A stretch of DNA of 11,126 bases from Bacillota bacterium (GTDB lineage: Bacteria > Bacillota > Clostridia > DSM-8532). Location of the stretch: contig JAEXPO010000073.1 of the NCBI GenBank assembly GCA_023446675.1, positions 1 through 11,126 on the forward strand, given 5' to 3'. The first letter of the stretch is position 1, and each line of letters begins with the position of its first letter. This document shows, piece after piece, positions 1,129-9,795 of this stretch. The position numbers and the translations under genes are program-made. Below the pieces are notes generated by a model. That model saw only the letters and a program-made list of their open reading frames with translations. It had not been told where the DNA came from and searched no databases.

Positions 1129-2478
1129 ATGGGTAGATTATTTGGCACTGATGGTGTCAGAGGTGTTGCGAATACGGAGCTTACAGGAGAGCTTGCCTAC
1201 GCCCTGGGGCGTACAGGGGCTTTTGTCCTGGCAAGTGAGACAAGGCATGTGCCTAAAATATTGGTTGGAAAGGACACACGCCGTTCGGGAGATATGCTTG
1301 AAAAAGCGCTGGTCGCAGGCATTTGCTCCACCGGTGCCGAGGCTGTTCTGGCTGGGTTTATTCCTACTCCTGCCATAGCTCATCTTGTTCGGGCGCATCA
1401 GTTTGATGCCGGGGTAGTTATCTCCGCATCGCATAATCCTGCTGAGTTTAATGGCATTAAATTCTTTAATTCGGAAGGCTATAAGCTTTCCGATGCCCTT
1501 GAGGATCGCATTGAGGCCCTTATTAAGAGCGGAGGCAGTGAAATTCCAAGCCCAACCGGTGAACAGTTGGGGATTGCTACGGAGCTGACCTCGGCTGTAA
1601 CCGAATATGTCGATTTTGCCTGTTCCACTGTGGAAGGGGATTTAACCGGGCTTTCCGTTGCCATTGACTGTGCCAACGGCGCAGCCTATAAAACCTCTCC
1701 CGAGGCACTTAAAAAACTGGGTACAAAGCTTTTTGTAATGGAGAATACGCCTGACGGACTCAATATCAATAAAAACTGCGGCTCAACCCATCTTGACAGA
1801 CTGAAAGCCTTTGTTCTGGAAAACGGCTGTGATGTGGGCCTGGCTTTTGACGGAGATGCCGACAGAGTTCTGGCCATAGACGAAACCGGAGCTATGGTGG
1901 ACGGAGATCAGATTATGGCTATCCTTGGGCTTGGTATGAAGCGGCAGGGCCAGCTTAAAAACAATACCATTGTGGCTACCGTTATGAGCAATCTCGGCTT
2001 TGATATCCTTTGCCGCAATGAAGGAATAAACCTTTTAAAGGCAGCGGTGGGGGATCGCTATGTGCTTGAAAAAATGATTGAAGGTGATTTTGTCATCGGC
2101 GGGGAGCAATCGGGACATATCATTCTGAAAAGCCACAATACCACAGGTGACGGACTGGTTACCGGGCTCAAGCTGCTTGCGGAGCTTAAGGCATCGGGAC
2201 GGAAGCTTTCAGAGCTGGCCTCCATTATGGCCATTTTCCCTCAGGTTCTCGTAAATGCCCGGGTGAGCAATGCCAAAAAGCACGGGTATTTAAACGACGA
2301 GGTAATAGCCGGTGCATGCAAGGCCCTGGAGGACGCATTTCACGGAGAAGGAAGAGTACTCATTCGCCCGTCAGGTACAGAGCCGCTGGTTAGGGTAATG
2401 ATTGAAGGGCGTGAGCAGGCGGTAATAACCCAAAAGGCGCAGGAGCTGGTGGATCTGATAGAGCAAAGGCTTGGCTGA
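1129..2478 (+). CDS. glmM: Phosphoglucosamine mutase GlmM
   Basis: Interconverts glucosamine-6-phosphate and glucosamine-1-phosphate in the cytoplasm, the second step toward UDP-GlcNAc for peptidoglycan. At 449 aa it is full length. Family landmarks are in order: N-terminal [11 protein letters not shown]; the phosphoserine loop VVISASHNP with catalytic Ser101; the magnesium loop [10 protein letters not shown] with Asp241, Asp243 and Asp245; the sugar-binding loop GGEQSGHI; and the C-terminal phosphate-binding [12 protein letters not shown]. This serine-loop form together with the GRLFGTDG start separates GlmM from phosphoglucomutase/phosphomannomutase. The start is set by CGGAGG at 1114-1119, 9 nt before the ATG, and by the universal N-terminus. 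It has its own promoter and a strong terminator, so it is not co-transcribed with glmS even though the two act in sequence. No defect is visible. Confidence 0.97.
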
Positions 2479-2564
2479 CATAAACAAGAGGAATATTCGC
2501 TTCATGAATGCCAGGTGTATGGGAATGGTGAGGCGTAAAAAGGATAGGTCAGGCACATAACAGA

Positions 2565-2631
2565 AGCAGGCTGCATAGGCTGTAAAGAACCCTGAAACAA
2601 AGGGTCAAAAGCCAGCAGCCTGCTCCTTTTT
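2565..2631 (+). terminator. Strong branched-stem terminator of glmM
   Basis: AGCAGGCTGC (2565-2574) pairs perfectly with GCAGCCTGCT (2615-2624). Inside are GGCT/AGCC (2578-2581 and 2610-2613) and ACCCT/AGGGT (2589-2593 and 2601-2605), so the arms stack into one long interrupted hairpin. TCCTTTTT follows. It lies about 86 bp after the glmM stop. Confidence 0.85.
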
Positions 2632-2685
2632 ACCTGTGAATCAGAGTGCGGTTGGAGTAAGGAACAGAGCTGTCTTTTGAAGCTA

Positions 2686-2714
2686 TTGAATCTTTACCGT
2701 CAATGGTATACAAT
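2686..2714 (+). promoter_or_regulatory. Probable promoter of the glmS transcript
   Basis: TTGAAT (2686-2691) and TACAAT (2709-2714) with a 17-bp spacer lie between the glmM terminator and the ribozyme. The predicted start near 2721 leaves about 80 nt of leader 5' of the ribozyme cleavage site. Confidence 0.6.
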
Positions 2715-2800
2715 GGTTGAGGATTAGGTTCAAACTGATGAGCTGGAGATTGGAAAAGAAGCTGCCAGGAAGGAGAGTTGAGGACAGGGCAGTAATAAAA

Positions 2801-2951
2801 AGCGCCAGGGCTGCACAAGTGTAAAAGCAAATGCAGTTGACGAGGAGAGGGAGGTTATCGATTTTTCGGCGGAAACCCTCCGGTGCACCACCATCGTAAC
2901 GGTACAACAAAATCCTGCGGTAATGCAGGCAACAGAAGGTATCTAAGTGGT
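2801..2951 (+). ncRNA. glmS self-cleaving ribozyme (glucosamine-6-phosphate responsive)
   Basis: The strand reads A-GCGCC at 2801-2806, the invariant cleavage-site context; cleavage is expected between A2801 and G2802. Conserved core blocks then appear in family order: TTGACGAGGAGAGGG at 2836-2850, GTTATCGA just after, TCGGCGGAAACC, and CCCTCCGGTG. Helices can be traced: P1 CTGCA/TGCAG (2811-2815 and 2832-2836), P3 ACCAC/GTGGT (2887-2891 and 2947-2951), P4.1 CCTGC/GCAGG flanking GGTAAT, and a short P4 GUAC/GUAU with one wobble pair. In this family glucosamine-6-phosphate acts as coenzyme for cleavage, after which the 5'-OH mRNA is degraded and GlmS production falls. All core elements look intact, so it should be functional; this is inferred from matching the consensus by eye. 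The next gene is glmS, as expected, but about 330 nt away. Confidence 0.95.
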
Positions 2952-3280
2952 CTTTTCTTTATTCTCTCAAAATCAATCCGAAACAAAATTGAAAAACGGC
3001 AATACTAGCAGAAGTAAAAACCTGCTGAAAAGGGACCTGTTTTTGTGTTGCACAGTTTTGACTCTAAAACTCTAAAACGGATACCAAAGGCAGAGTAAGC
3101 AAAGCTTAATTACTAGTTTAGCTTTAATAAATGATGCCGTAGCTTCGTTAACGGAGTCTTTAAATCTGTGTGCATAAAGGCGCAGGTTTGTAGATCCAGC
3201 TGTTGGTGCCGTGTATTTAATCTACACTGAGACAGATTAATCAGATAATAAAAGTGTGATTTGAAGGGAGAATTCTATAT
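2952..3280 (+). other. Long untranslated spacer between ribozyme and glmS
   Basis: No gene is visible in these 329 nt. It holds several hairpins: AGCAG/CTGCT near 3006-3025, AAAGCT/AGCTTT (3101-3106 and 3120-3125), CTTC/GGAG around GTTAAC (3143-3156), and the competing pair at 3189-3240. A TTGACT at 3058-3063 has only a poor -10 partner (ATACCA), so a second promoter is possible but weak. The glmS ribosome binding site, AAGGGAG at 3264-3270, closes the spacer. Confidence 0.5.
3189..3240 (+). promoter_or_regulatory. Two mutually exclusive hairpins just before glmS
   Basis: TGTAGAT (3189-3195) pairs with ATCTACA (3220-3226). TTAATCT (3217-3223) pairs perfectly with AGATTAA (3234-3240). Both stems need ATCT at 3220-3223, so only one can form. 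The second ends 23 nt before the ribosome binding site. Regulatory use is inferred. Confidence 0.4.
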
Positions 3281-5107
3281 ATGTGTGGAATTGTTGGTTA
3301 TATAGGAAAAAAGGACGTTACCCCGATTTTGCTGGAGGGTTTAAAAAAACTTGAATACAGAGGTTATGACTCGGCCGGCGTGGCCGTTTTAGCTCATGAT
3401 AAAATAGATGTGGTAAAGGCCAAGGGCCGTCTTGCCGTACTTGAAGAAAAGCTGAATGCAAAGCCGGTTACCGGCAACATCGGTATCGGGCATACGCGAT
3501 GGGCTACCCACGGGGAACCCAATGATGTAAATTCTCATCCTCATGTTAGCTTTAATCAAAAAATAGCAGTTGTTCATAACGGGATAATTGAAAATTACAT
3601 GCAAATTAAAGATTTCCTAATGGGCAAGGGATATGTCTTTCAGTCTGAAACAGACACAGAGGTTATTGCGCATCTCATCCAGTACAATTATAAGGGTGAT
3701 CTGGTAAAGGCCGTGATGGAAACGCTTAACGACGTAGAAGGAGCCTATGCACTGGGGGTTGTATGCACGGACTGCCCGGAGCGTTTTGTAGCTGCCAGAA
3801 AGGACAGTCCGCTCATTGTGGGCCTTGGCAGGGATGAAAACTTTATTGCTTCGGACATACCCGCTATTTTGGAATATACCCGTGACATATACATTCTTGA
3901 GGACAAGGAAGTAATCAACATAACCGCCGACAAGGTTGAGATTTATAATCTTTTGGGCGAAAGAGTCCAGCGTGACGTATTCCATGTGGACTGGGATGTT
4001 AAATCCGCGGAAAAGGGCGGCTATGAGCACTTCATGATGAAGGAAATGTGCGAGGAGCCTAACGTAATTAAAGCAACGATTAGTCCCCGCCTTCAGGACG
4101 GTCATGTTGTTTTTGATCCCTTTAAGCTCACTGAGGAGAAAATCAAGTCAATCGACAAAATTAACATTATTGCCTGCGGAACGGCCTATCACGCAGGTAT
4201 GATTGGAAAATACGCCATTGAAAAGCTGGCGGGTATTCCTGTTGAGGTAGATGTGGCCTCCGAATTCCGTTATCGGGATCCCCTTGTCACTCCAAGCCAA
4301 CTGACATTGGTAATCAGTCAGTCAGGCGAAACGCTGGATACCTTAATGGCCATGAGGGAAGCTAAAAAGAAGGGCTCCAGAACTCTGGCCATTGTCAATG
4401 TGGTAGGCAGCTCCATAGCAAGAGAAGCTGACGATGTCATCTACACCTGGGCGGGACCTGAAATCGCCGTAGCCTCAACCAAGGCCTACAATACCCAATT
4501 GTCCGCCCTTTACCTTTTGGCCTTCTACCTTGCGGAAAAAAGGGGAAGGATAGGGGAAGAAGAGCTTAAAGGCTTTATGGAGAATTTTAAGGCTCTGCCG
4601 GGACAGGTGGAAGATGTCCTCACTCAGCGGGAGATAATTCAGAAATTTGCCTATCAGCATTTCAATTCAAAAAGTGTTTTCTTTATAGGAAGAGGCCTGG
4701 ATTACGCTCTTTCCATGGAAGGCTCCCTGAAGCTCAAGGAAATTTCCTAAATCCATTCGGAAGCCTACGCAGGCGGCGAGCTAAAGCACGGAACCATTGC
4801 CCTTATTGAATCAGGAACCCTGGTGGTTTGCCCTCTTACCCAGGATAGCCTTTTTGACAAAATGGTAAGCAATATCCGGGAAGTTAAGGCTCGTGGGGCG
4901 GTTGTTCTTGCCATTGCCTGCGAGAAACGGGCAGCGGAGGTTGAAAAGGTTGCTGACGCCGTGATTACAATTCCGGATGTAACGCCTCTTTTGGCACCGG
5001 CCGTTGCAGTAACGCCATTACAGCTTTTTGCCTATTATGTGTCTGTCATGAAGGGCAATGACGTGGATAAGCCCAGGAACCTGGCTAAAAGCGTTACGGT
5101 GGAATGA
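3281..5107 (+). pseudogene. glmS: Glutamine-fructose-6-phosphate aminotransferase GlmS, interrupted by an in-frame TAA
   Basis: GlmS makes glucosamine-6-phosphate from fructose-6-phosphate and glutamine, the first committed step to UDP-GlcNAc. The start is certain: MCGIVGYIG with nucleophile Cys2, and AAGGGAG 10 nt upstream. The glutaminase domain spans about residues 1-220 (HTRWATHGEPN, HNGIIENY, ETDTEVIAHLI). The first SIS domain has IIACGTAYHAG, SEFRYRDP, ISQSGETLDT and AVASTKAYNTQ. The second begins FFIGRGLDYALSMEGSLKLK. Codon 490, a conserved Tyr in the family (KEISYIH), is TAA. Translation would continue in the same frame as IHSEAYAGGELKHG and run to DKPRNLAKSVTVE, giving 608 residues, normal family length. 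A terminated product keeps Glu487 but loses His503 of ELKHG, the family's ring-opening residue, so it should lack synthase activity. The options are a recent nonsense mutation, a base-call error, or readthrough. Confidence 0.9.
4748..4750 (+). other. In-frame TAA inside glmS (expected Tyr codon)
   Basis: The context reads GAA ATT TCC TAA ATC CAT. The family reads E-I-S-Y-I-H here, so one base change from TAC or TAT explains it. The next 118 sense codons show no other lesion. Confidence 0.93.
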
Positions 5108-5178
5108 GAAAAGGGCTCTTCTCAATTCTCAAAGAGGCAAGGCTGCAAGGTTAAAGGGACAAAAACCTGATTCATGTG

Positions 5179-5225
5179 TAAAAGCCATCGGTGATGTTTA
5201 TCCCAACGTCGTCTGATGGCTTTTA
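5179..5225 (+). terminator. Terminator of the glmS unit (likely bidirectional)
   Basis: TAAAAGCCATC (5179-5189) pairs perfectly with GATGGCTTTTA (5215-5225), 11 bp with A and T flanks on the two arms. A GATG/CGTC extension inside lengthens it. It lies about 70 bp after the glmS stop. Confidence 0.8.
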
Positions 5226-5305
5226 TCAATGCTACATTTATTGCCGAGGCACATCTGAAATGATATCATTGTAAAGTATTACCATGGCTTTGGCAGCAGA
5301 TGAAA

Positions 5306-5333
5306 ATCTGGATGTAATGAGTGAAATCCAGAT
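5306..5333 (+). repeat. Perfect 8-bp inverted repeat upstream of the 195-aa gene
   Basis: ATCTGGAT (5306-5313) and ATCCAGAT (5326-5333) flank a 12-nt spacer, ending 45 bp before the ATG at 5379. No T run follows, so an operator or leader hairpin is more likely than a terminator. Confidence 0.45.
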
Positions 5334-5378
5334 ATAAGTTTGTTAATATGGATAAAAATATAATCGAAGGGGGTTTAT

Positions 5379-5966
5379 ATGGAAAAGCAAATAATTGATT
5401 TAATAAACCGAATTAAGACAACAACTAATCCTGGAATAATTGCTTCTGAAATCTCTCACCTTATTGTAGAAGCCTTGAGAGAAGAGAAAATTAGTCTTTA
5501 TGAAGCATATATGCTTAATTACGAGTACATCAAATTCAATAGAATGTGGTACACTCAACCCGCATGGAGGGGATGGAGCCAGACTTCAAGATGTCTGGAT
5601 ATATTGAATCAGAAGTTATTAGCACACGTTTTTAATGAGGATATAACTGCTGACAGGATGAGAGAATGGGGTCTTGAAGCGTTTAAGCTTTCTAATGAAA
5701 AAAGAAAGCATTACATTATGGACAGGTATAATTTGTTTTTAAACGCAGAGGAACAGCCGCAGTTAATAAAAGAATTACTAAAGTATAGAAATAATTATAA
5801 AAAGTTAAGTTTTGATAATGGACCCTATCATACTGAGTCTTTTCCTTATGAATTTTATTCTCCGGAGGAAATCCTTTTAGATACATTCTCTAAGGACAGA
5901 TATAAGGCAAGCATGAATATGAGTGAAGCTATAGAAGATCTCATCGTTGAAATAAATTTAGTATAA
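5379..5966 (+). CDS. Hypothetical protein, 195 aa, mostly helical
   Basis: I do not recognise this family. The start is well supported: AAGGGGG at 5367-5373 lies 5 nt before the ATG. There is no signal peptide or membrane segment, so it is probably cytoplasmic. The sequence is charged and helix-prone, with a Trp/Tyr-rich middle (around residues 57-68, MWYTQPAWRGWSQ) and an acidic C-terminus. Its DNA is clearly more AT-rich than glmM and glmS next door (about one third G+C in the line I counted), which suggests separate acquisition. It stands alone, with 120 bp to the next gene and a perfect inverted repeat upstream. Small acidic orphan proteins like this are sometimes immunity proteins of contact-dependent toxins, but no toxin gene lies in the window, so that is speculation. 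Confidence 0.75.
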   Translation: MEKQIIDLINRIKTTTNPGIIASEISHLIVEALREEKISLYEAYMLNYEYIKFNRMWYTQPAWRGWSQTSRCLDILNQKLLAHVFNEDITADRMREWGLEAFKLSNEKRKHYIMDRYNLFLNAEEQPQLIKELLKYRNNYKKLSFDNGPYHTESFPYEFYSPEEILLDTFSKDRYKASMNMSEAIEDLIVEINLV

Positions 5967-6098
5967 ATCAGTATTATAGTGTCAGACGGGGTTTCTGCTT
6001 GCCCTTAACCGGTTGACCGGCAGAGGTAACTATTTTGGTAATACAAGTTATAACAGTTAATCCATTGGTAAATTTTCAGTTATTTTATGGAGGATACA

Positions 6099-6365
6099 AT
6101 GCAAGAGAATAGTTCAATTACCCAAGCGACAGAGGAAGAAGCTCAGAAACGAGTTATTAAGGAGGGCAAGCGTTATCGACACTTTAAAGGTAAGGAATAT
6201 TTGGTAATATACGTTGCAAAACATTCAGAAACAATGGAAGAAATGGTTGTTTATCAGGCTCTTTATGGAGAGCATGGCATATGGGTAAGACCTTTAGGTA
6301 TGTTTTTGGAAAAAACCGAGGTTAATGAAAAATGGGTGTATAGGTTTGAAGAGATCAATGATTAA
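6099..6365 (+). CDS. DUF1653 family protein
   Basis: The protein is 88 aa. The core GKRYRHFKGKEYLVIYVAKH, followed by SETMEEMVVYQALYGEHG and IWVRPLGMFLEK, is the DUF1653 signature: a small beta-rich, SH3-like domain of unknown function found as a stand-alone protein in many Firmicutes and other bacteria. The start is placed at the second ATG: the ATG at 6087 overlaps the Shine-Dalgarno GGAGG (6089-6093), which is correctly spaced (5 nt) for the ATG at 6099. The domain occupies about residues 20-85; the first 20 residues are a polar tail. The protein is soluble and complete. Neighbours do not suggest a role, and I see no terminator directly behind it. Confidence 0.88.
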   Translation: MQENSSITQATEEEAQKRVIKEGKRYRHFKGKEYLVIYVAKHSETMEEMVVYQALYGEHGIWVRPLGMFLEKTEVNEKWVYRFEEIND

Positions 6366-6564
6366 TTTTGGGTTTTGAGGAAGCTTGACGTAGTCCACGG
6401 AAATGAGACTCGGGGTGTACGATAAGAGAGATAAATGTAAAAATAGAGAGTTAATCAAACAAATACTTTTTACGGACAAATTTCTATTTTCTGAAAATAA
6501 TAGATTCTTTGCTATTACAAAGTGGTATCAAAGGGTATATAGCTTGAAGAAATTGAATATTGGG

Positions 6565-6592
6565 TTAACAGGGCTGAACAGAGATTTATAAT
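6565..6592 (+). promoter_or_regulatory. Probable promoter of the 114-aa gene
   Basis: TTAACA (6565-6570) and a perfect TATAAT (6587-6592) are 16 bp apart. The predicted start near 6599 leaves a leader of about 43 nt that includes the ribosome binding site GCGAGG (6626-6631). Confidence 0.6.
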
Positions 6593-6641
6593 CTTTGACA
6601 AGTAACTGGATTTATTTCTCTAATTGCGAGGTAAAAGTTAG

Positions 6642-6986
6642 ATGAAATTTGAATATGGAAGCTTCACCTGTGATGTGGAAGTGTTTCGTAAAAATCAGGA
6701 TCTTTTAATTCGTTTTTATAATAAATCGACAGAGCAAGATGAGGATGAAATTGTCAATCTGGTTATCGTAGACCCTGGTTATGGTTATCTTCTCCTTAAA
6801 ATTAAAGGGGATGGGGGACTGTTAAGTGGTTATTTAGATGAGAATATATTTTCATCGGATGAATTGGTGGATGCCGCGATTGATTATATACAAAGTCTGC
6901 TCCCTTTATCAAAAAGCATATATATAGCCTATCATGTTAATCTTGTGAAAACGACAAGTTTTATCGAGTACAATGGTGAGTATTAG
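6642..6986 (+). CDS. Hypothetical protein, 114 aa, acidic
   Basis: I do not recognise the family. The ATG has GCGAGG 10 nt upstream and a promoter about 50 bp away, so expression is plausible. The first half looks like antiparallel beta strands (MKFEYGSFTCDVEVFRK, LLIRFYN, EIVNLVIVDPGYGYLLLKI). The second half has a helix (SSDELVDAAIDYIQSLLPL) and two final strands. It is acidic, without signal peptide or membrane segment. The gene is AT-rich like the one at 5379. Its size and fold pattern would suit a small immunity or antitoxin protein, but no cognate partner is visible and I assign no function. Confidence 0.68.
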   Translation: MKFEYGSFTCDVEVFRKNQDLLIRFYNKSTEQDEDEIVNLVIVDPGYGYLLLKIKGDGGLLSGYLDENIFSSDELVDAAIDYIQSLLPLSKSIYIAYHVNLVKTTSFIEYNGEY

Positions 6987-9260: not shown

Positions 9261-9398
9261 ATGAGCAGGCATGCCTTTTTATCTTCAGGGGACTTCATAT
9301 ATATTGAAAATGCCAATCCGCAAGAAAACTTCTATGAATGGAAGAAATGTAAGGATACTGTTATAGGAGGTCCTGGGACATCTGAGGTGATGAAGTGA
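9261..9398 (+). CDS. Small hypothetical protein, 45 aa
   Basis: AGGGAG (9247-9252) precedes the ATG by 8 nt, an excellent site. The frame runs MSRHAFLSSGDFIYIENANP, then QENFYEWKKCKDTVIGGPGT and SEVMK, ending in TGA at 9396-9398. That stop overlaps the GTG start of the TmrB-like gene as GTGA, a layout typical of translational coupling. I do not recognise the sequence. It could be a genuine small protein or the remaining N-terminus of a larger gene; the tight spacing at both ends favours a real unit. Confidence 0.6.
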   Translation: MSRHAFLSSGDFIYIENANPQENFYEWKKCKDTVIGGPGTSEVMK

Positions 9399-9795
9399 TT
9401 ATTTGGATAAACGGCGCCTTTGGCGCGGGCAAAACGCAAACGGCCTATGAATTAAATCGTAGACTGCCGGATTCCTTTATTTATGATCCTGAAAATATGG
9501 GTTTCTTCATTCGCAGAAACATTCCGCCTGGGATACAGAAGGATGATTTCCAGGATTATAGCATATGGATGGGGCAGGCTCATGGGGTGCCAGACAGATT
9601 GACCGGTGCCTTGAGGGGCTTTCTGCAGAAGCCTTCAGCGAACATCTTTATACGGATGAGCTTTCGATTGAGGAAGTGGTTGAGGCTATCGCTCATAAAT
9701 GCAATATTCAATTGACCCCGAATAATGGGAATGGATTTCAAAAAAGCTTAAGACGCTTAGGCATAAAACTTCAGCAGATGGGATTTTTTAAATAA
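9395..9795 (+). pseudogene. TmrB-like P-loop ATPase gene, broken by an out-of-frame internal deletion
   Basis: TmrB-type proteins are about 200-aa P-loop NTPases, named for tunicamycin resistance in Bacillus. The N-terminal 58 residues are here in one frame from GTG 9395: MIIWINGAFGAGKTQTAYEL with Walker A GAFGAGKT (7-14), then FIYDPENMGFFIRRNIP and KDDFQDYSIW. The C-terminal 70 or so residues continue in another frame: GSWGARQIDRCLEGLS, YTDELSIEEVVEAIA and a basic end, stopping at TAA 9793-9795. Compared with the family, roughly 65-70 residues between QDYxxW and the SWxAxQIDRC motif are missing; the junction is at about 9566-9575. The first frame runs on as nonsense to a stop at 9713-9715. 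GAGGTGA (9384-9390) is a near-perfect ribosome binding site and the start overlaps the 45-aa gene by 4 bp, so the gene was once properly expressed. The product should be inactive. Confidence 0.85.

What the first reader, a model, noticed from the sequence alone, without database searches (positions are those of the whole stretch)
4748..4750. Nonsense codon in the middle of an otherwise perfect glmS
A single TAA replaces the conserved Tyr of KEISYIH at codon 490, yet the remaining 118 codons read as undamaged GlmS to the canonical SVTVE end. Termination would remove His503 and most of the second SIS domain and so abolish synthesis of glucosamine-6-phosphate, normally essential. Either this is a sequencing error, the strain has another glmS or lives on imported amino sugars, a suppressor exists, or the UAA is read through. 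Because glucosamine-6-phosphate also triggers the upstream ribozyme, loss of GlmS would keep that ribozyme permanently off.
Basis: partly seen in the sequence, partly recalled or inferred. Interest (0 to 1): 0.7.

Follow-up and report, generated by a model that had tools for sequence, protein, structure and literature searches.

The report
Stray stop codon in glmS
One contig of an uncultured clostridium shows a stop codon inside an otherwise intact cell-wall gene, but near-identical sequences carry the gene whole, so this is most likely a sequence error or a one-off mutation and not biology.

Summary
In detail: TAA at 4748-4750 interrupts glmS (3281-5107) at codon 490; the pieces of 489 and 118 codons are otherwise a complete GlmS. 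It is not a feature of the lineage. In the listed best 120 of 7,998 scored homologues the identical 489-residue product is on one contig, of the window's own length, while a 608-residue GlmS identical on both sides of the stop, with tyrosine at 490, is on three contigs, the longest 12,372 bases. The window's next gene, unchanged, is also on three contigs whose longest is 12,372 bases, so a near-identical contig with whole glmS very probably exists. Tyrosine is also there in 80 of 80 genomic loci returned. TAA ends five other ORFs here. Best reading: a base-call or assembly error; second, a private nonsense mutation. Programmed read-through is very unlikely. Reads were not available, so error and private mutation cannot be told apart.

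The parts
3281..4747 (+). glmS, 5' piece: glutaminase domain, first SIS domain and the start of the second (489 codons)
   Evidence: Pfam SIS at residues 288-414; TIGR01135 positions 1-489
4748..4750 (+). in-frame TAA at codon 490, where relatives have tyrosine
   Evidence: Tyr in 15 of 15 aligned relatives and in 80 of 80 genomic loci
4751..5107 (+). glmS, 3' piece: rest of the second SIS domain with H503 and K603, and the TGA stop
   Evidence: TIGR01135 positions 491-607; Pfam SIS, 35.8 bits
2790..2954 (+). glmS ribozyme (RF00234), complete match, in the glmS leader
   Evidence: 89.8 bits, model 1-167 of 167
1129..2478 (+). glmM, phosphoglucosamine mutase, open frame intact
   Evidence: TIGR01455, 555.8 bits against a cut-off of 447.55
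5379..5966 (+). next gene downstream, 195 residues, function unknown; used as link to the near-identical contig
   Evidence: identical protein on 3 contigs, longest 12,372 bases

Best explanation
The TAA is a single wrong base in this contig (base-call or consensus error) inside an ordinary, functional, ribozyme-controlled glmS. In the living population the gene encodes the complete 608-residue enzyme. Shown: the stop was seen on one contig only, and otherwise identical intact proteins exist. Inferred: that the cause is technical and not a real mutation in some cells, and that the contig is metagenomic.
For: P0001 (489 aa) is on one contig, of 11,126 bases, the window's own length. P0002 (608 aa, identical over the 489 and over the 118 residues, Tyr490) is on three contigs, longest 12,372. 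The window's next gene is on three contigs, longest 12,372; the window is presumably one of those three, which leaves two others. The shared length links a near-identical contig to the intact gene. Two proteins 98% identical over the 489 residues are intact; 80 of 80 genomic loci have a Tyr codon. No further decay of the gene: no frameshift, no second stop, similar GC3 on both sides.
Against: No reads were available, so the error itself is not shown. That the 12,372-base contig of P0002 and that of P0241 are one and the same is inferred from the equal length. The DNA of the intact near-identical contig could not be read, and the sources of P0002 are not shown.
Confidence: 0.75

Rival explanations
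1. A real, recent nonsense mutation private to a strain or minority of cells, which either are dying out or get glucosamine-6-phosphate from elsewhere (imported GlcNAc, or NagB run backwards).
For: GlmS-less bacteria exist: Akkermansia muciniphila lacks GlmS and needs GlcNAc (PMC5902328, passages); a Streptococcus mutans glmS mutant grew with GlcNAc and not without (PMC3306399, passages); glmS insertion mutants of Pasteurella multocida were recovered in a library (PMC9045168, passages). nagB is over cut-off in 24 of 33 genomes of a related order and nagA in 18 of 33. The absence of further decay fits a recent event as well as an error.
Against: The allele is on one contig against three intact ones. 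No genome of this organism is held. Two relatives, G001 (the genome of the locus with the best identity, 81%) and G003, have neither nagB nor nagA at E<=1e-20, though G002 has nagA over cut-off and a weak nagB. In Akkermansia NagB did not make GlcN6P at physiological conditions.
Confidence: 0.2
2. The UAA is read through, suppressed or reassigned and full-length GlmS is made from this allele.
For: The 118 codons after the stop are intact.
Against: Not conserved: Tyr codon in 80 of 80 loci and Tyr in the otherwise identical P0002. TAA ends five other ORFs in the window. The 106 bases from 4745 on fold no better than shuffles (z +0.80). No tRNA in the window; the genome could not be searched for one.
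Confidence: 0.02
3. A naturally truncated, functional GlmS variant, or a split gene with a re-initiated second piece (GTG ORF at 4823-5107).
For: A GTG ORF of 94 codons lies downstream.
Against: Truncation removes H503 and K603 (alignment; roles recalled), and the GTG ORF begins after the H503 codon. In the listed best 120 of 7,998 homologues only the window's own contig carries this 489-residue form; two others of 485 and 506 residues are labelled partial by their source.
Confidence: 0.01

Closest known systems
GlmS, glutamine--fructose-6-phosphate transaminase (isomerizing), NCBIfam TIGR01135
   Same: Both pieces together cover 606 of 607 model positions; glmM - ribozyme - glmS order as in relatives such as G001.
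   Different: One in-frame TAA at codon 490, seen in this contig only.
glmS ribozyme, RF00234
   Same: Complete match upstream of glmS.
   Different: Nothing unusual seen; 89.8 bits against 80.4, 89.8 and 97.4 in three relatives.

Membership tests
GlmS (TIGR01135) | match over the curated cut-off | tested here: met
   5' piece alone 658.8 bits against 418.05; 3' piece 142.7 bits
GlmS (TIGR01135) | complete open frame with H503 and K603 translated | tested here: not met
   TAA at codon 490 in this contig; met in P0002, identical otherwise
glmS ribozyme (RF00234) | covariance model match over the gathering score, upstream of glmS | tested here: met
   89.8 bits against 37, 326 bases before the ATG
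glmS ribozyme (RF00234) | self-cleavage on glucosamine-6-phosphate | not testable with these tools
   needs an in vitro assay
Programmed stop read-through or recoding | stop conserved in relatives | tested here: not met
   Tyr in 15 of 15 proteins, Tyr codon in 80 of 80 loci
Programmed stop read-through or recoding | stimulatory downstream structure | tested here: not met
   z-score +0.80; 156 of 200 shuffles fold at least as well
Stop codon reassignment | TAA not used as a stop | tested here: not met
   TAA ends five other ORFs in the window
Pseudogene by long-standing decay | more than one disabling change | tested here: not met
   one stop, no frameshift, GC3 similar on both sides

The most novel reading that the evidence does not exclude
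The stop is real in a living subpopulation that makes no GlmS and obtains glucosamine-6-phosphate by scavenging GlcNAc or by the ammonia-dependent reverse reaction of NagB: an early step of GlmS loss caught in a lineage whose relatives often carry nagB.
Probability: 0.05. Interest if true: 0.35.

Novelty: not a real feature. Interest (0 to 1): 0.06.

Why it matters
It hardly does: the gene is a normal glmS and the stop is most likely an error of this contig. The case is useful only as a caution: a nonsense codon in an essential gene seen on a single contig should be checked against near-identical contigs before any mechanism is proposed. If real, it would be a start point for studying how clostridia live without GlmS.

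Tried and rejected
Whole genome of the window: not held, so a second glmS, nagA/nagB, uptake genes and suppressor tRNAs could not be sought in this organism. Plasmid and phage records: no megablast match. Viral contigs: no match to 39 bases across the codon. Literature: a search for glmS with 'premature stop codon' and 'glucosamine-6-phosphate synthase' gave one paper, unrelated by its passages (PMC3071312). A search with 'glmS ribozyme', 'nonsense mutation' and 'glmS' (at least two of three) matched 355 papers; the ten listed showed nothing on point by title and start of abstract. Searches on glmS and nagB led to PMC5902328, PMC3306399 and PMC9045168, of which I saw passages. A listing on metagenome errors was not used.

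Idea that sister lineages have truly lost glmS: 13 of 33 genomes of the order have no glmS at E<=1e-100 (over the NCBIfam cut-off 19 of 33 have it). Of those 13, 12 have nagB over cut-off against 12 of the other 20, and 0 of 13 against 17 of 20 have the ribozyme. glmM itself is missing at E<=1e-60 in 3 of 33. But on a glmM tree the absence is not clustered (8 changes, shuffled mean 8.5, 232 of 500 shuffles as low; 29 genomes and the window; 4 of 33 genomes dropped, namely three without a glmM hit and G002, whose glmM is in two pieces), and in 3 of the 10 glmS-less genomes fetched the contig ends just after glmM. Gaps in draft genomes may explain most of it; I do not claim loss.

Script errors: a motif search read the wrong place in at least 3 of 80 loci and missed one; one search replaced it by alignment. 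In one search the codon letters of L081-L083 (minus strand, duplicates of L059, L001, L002) are wrong; the residue is Tyr in all 83 rows, and the 80 original loci have 46 TAT and 34 TAC.

Full report
Observation. The window carries, in order on the + strand, the end of a sugar kinase gene (PfkB-like by eye; no family search was made), glmM (1129-2478), a glmS ribozyme (2790-2954), glmS (from 3281) and a run of small genes. The glmS frame is open for 489 codons, stops at TAA 4748-4750, and goes on for 118 codons to a TGA. The two pieces match the glmS model TIGR01135 at positions 1-489 and 491-607. The finding is therefore accurate, and chance is excluded: both sides are homologous and in one frame.

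Consequence if real. By alignment with GlmS of E. coli type (4amv) the truncated product keeps E487 but loses H503 and K603. That these act in catalysis (E. coli Glu488, His504, Lys603) is recalled, not tested. I infer that the product would not make glucosamine-6-phosphate.

Is it in the lineage? A search of 5.8 billion proteins scored 7,998 relatives (the candidates that share most words; the best 120 are listed). The identical 489-residue form is held by one contig, of 11,126 bases, which is the window's length. P0002, 608 residues, identical at all 489 and all 118 positions and with Tyr490, is held by three contigs, the longest of 12,372 bases. Its sources are not shown. P0003 and P0004, 98% identical over the 489 residues, are intact; P0004 is on a contig of 606,568 bases. 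The window's next gene (5379-5966) is also held, unchanged, by three contigs, the longest again 12,372 bases; the window is presumably one of the three. I infer that one contig of that length carries both the unchanged neighbour and the intact glmS, that is, a near-identical copy of this stretch without the stop. Fifteen of 15 relatives in the alignment have Tyr at 490. In genome contigs 80 loci were returned (82 confirmed, best 80 kept), and 80 of 80 have a Tyr codon there. In the order of G001, the genome of the locus with the best identity (81%), 20 of 33 genomes have glmS at E<=1e-100 and none of these 20 matches has a stop inside (the match in G005 covers residues 1-292 only, so it says nothing on codon 490).

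Read-through or recoding. A programmed stop should be conserved; it is not. TAA ends five other ORFs in the window, so it is not reassigned. The sequence after the stop folds no better than shuffles (z +0.80). No tRNA lies in the window.

Error or private mutation. Both predict what is seen: one contig with the stop, no other decay of the gene (GC3 0.49 and 0.51). Reads would decide and were not available. Loss of GlmS usually makes cells depend on amino sugar: a Streptococcus mutans glmS mutant did not grow without GlcNAc (PMC3306399, passages), and Akkermansia, which lacks GlmS, needs GlcNAc (PMC5902328, passages). Against strict essentiality, glmS insertion mutants of Pasteurella multocida were recovered (PMC9045168, passages). 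The intact form also outnumbers the broken one, three contigs to one. I therefore put an error first (0.75) and a private mutation second (0.20). A second gene in the window, an AAA-type ATPase at 9395-9795, looks broken too; whether this is real decay or another fault of the contig I cannot say.

Could this lineage do without GlmS? The window's genome is not held. In the order of G001, nagB is over cut-off in 24 of 33 and nagA in 18 of 33 genomes; G001 and G003 have neither at E<=1e-20, while G002 has a nagB match below cut-off and nagA over it. Thirteen of 33 genomes show no glmS at E<=1e-100, but on a glmM tree this absence is scattered like shuffled labels, and in 3 of the 10 fetched the contig ends beside glmM, so gaps of draft genomes may explain most cases. 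The one case worth a look is the sister pair G029 and G030: glmM lies inside a contig, with nagB beside it in convergent orientation, and neither glmS over cut-off nor the ribozyme was found in either genome.

Verdict. An ordinary ribozyme-controlled glmS whose stop codon is most likely an error of this contig.

Noticed in passing
L099 (G029) 4346-6702 and L100 (G030) 2261-4536: In two sister draft genomes nagB lies beside glmM in convergent orientation, and neither glmS (over cut-off) nor the glmS ribozyme was found in either genome. Possibly NagB stands in for GlmS there, or both drafts miss glmS.
   Followed up: partly
window 9395-9795: A seemingly decayed AAA-type ATPase gene: about the first 58 residues are up to about 80% identical to relatives, then the frame and a middle part appear lost; the end seems to lie in ORF 9565-9795 (by eye). 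A second disrupted gene in this window.
   Followed up: partly
order of G001, 33 genomes: 12 of 13 genomes without glmS at E<=1e-100 have nagB over cut-off, against 12 of 20 with glmS; seven genomes carry SIS-only GlmS-like proteins of about 350 residues at 248-262 bits against TIGR01135, similar in layout to GlmD or NagB-II (recalled).
   Followed up: partly
L028: A stop codon near the C-terminal end of the glmS match of this draft genome (alignment index 602).
   Followed up: no
window 2955-3280: The stretch between ribozyme and glmS start is 326 bases, longer than the 207-249 bases in L001, L002 and L059.
   Followed up: no
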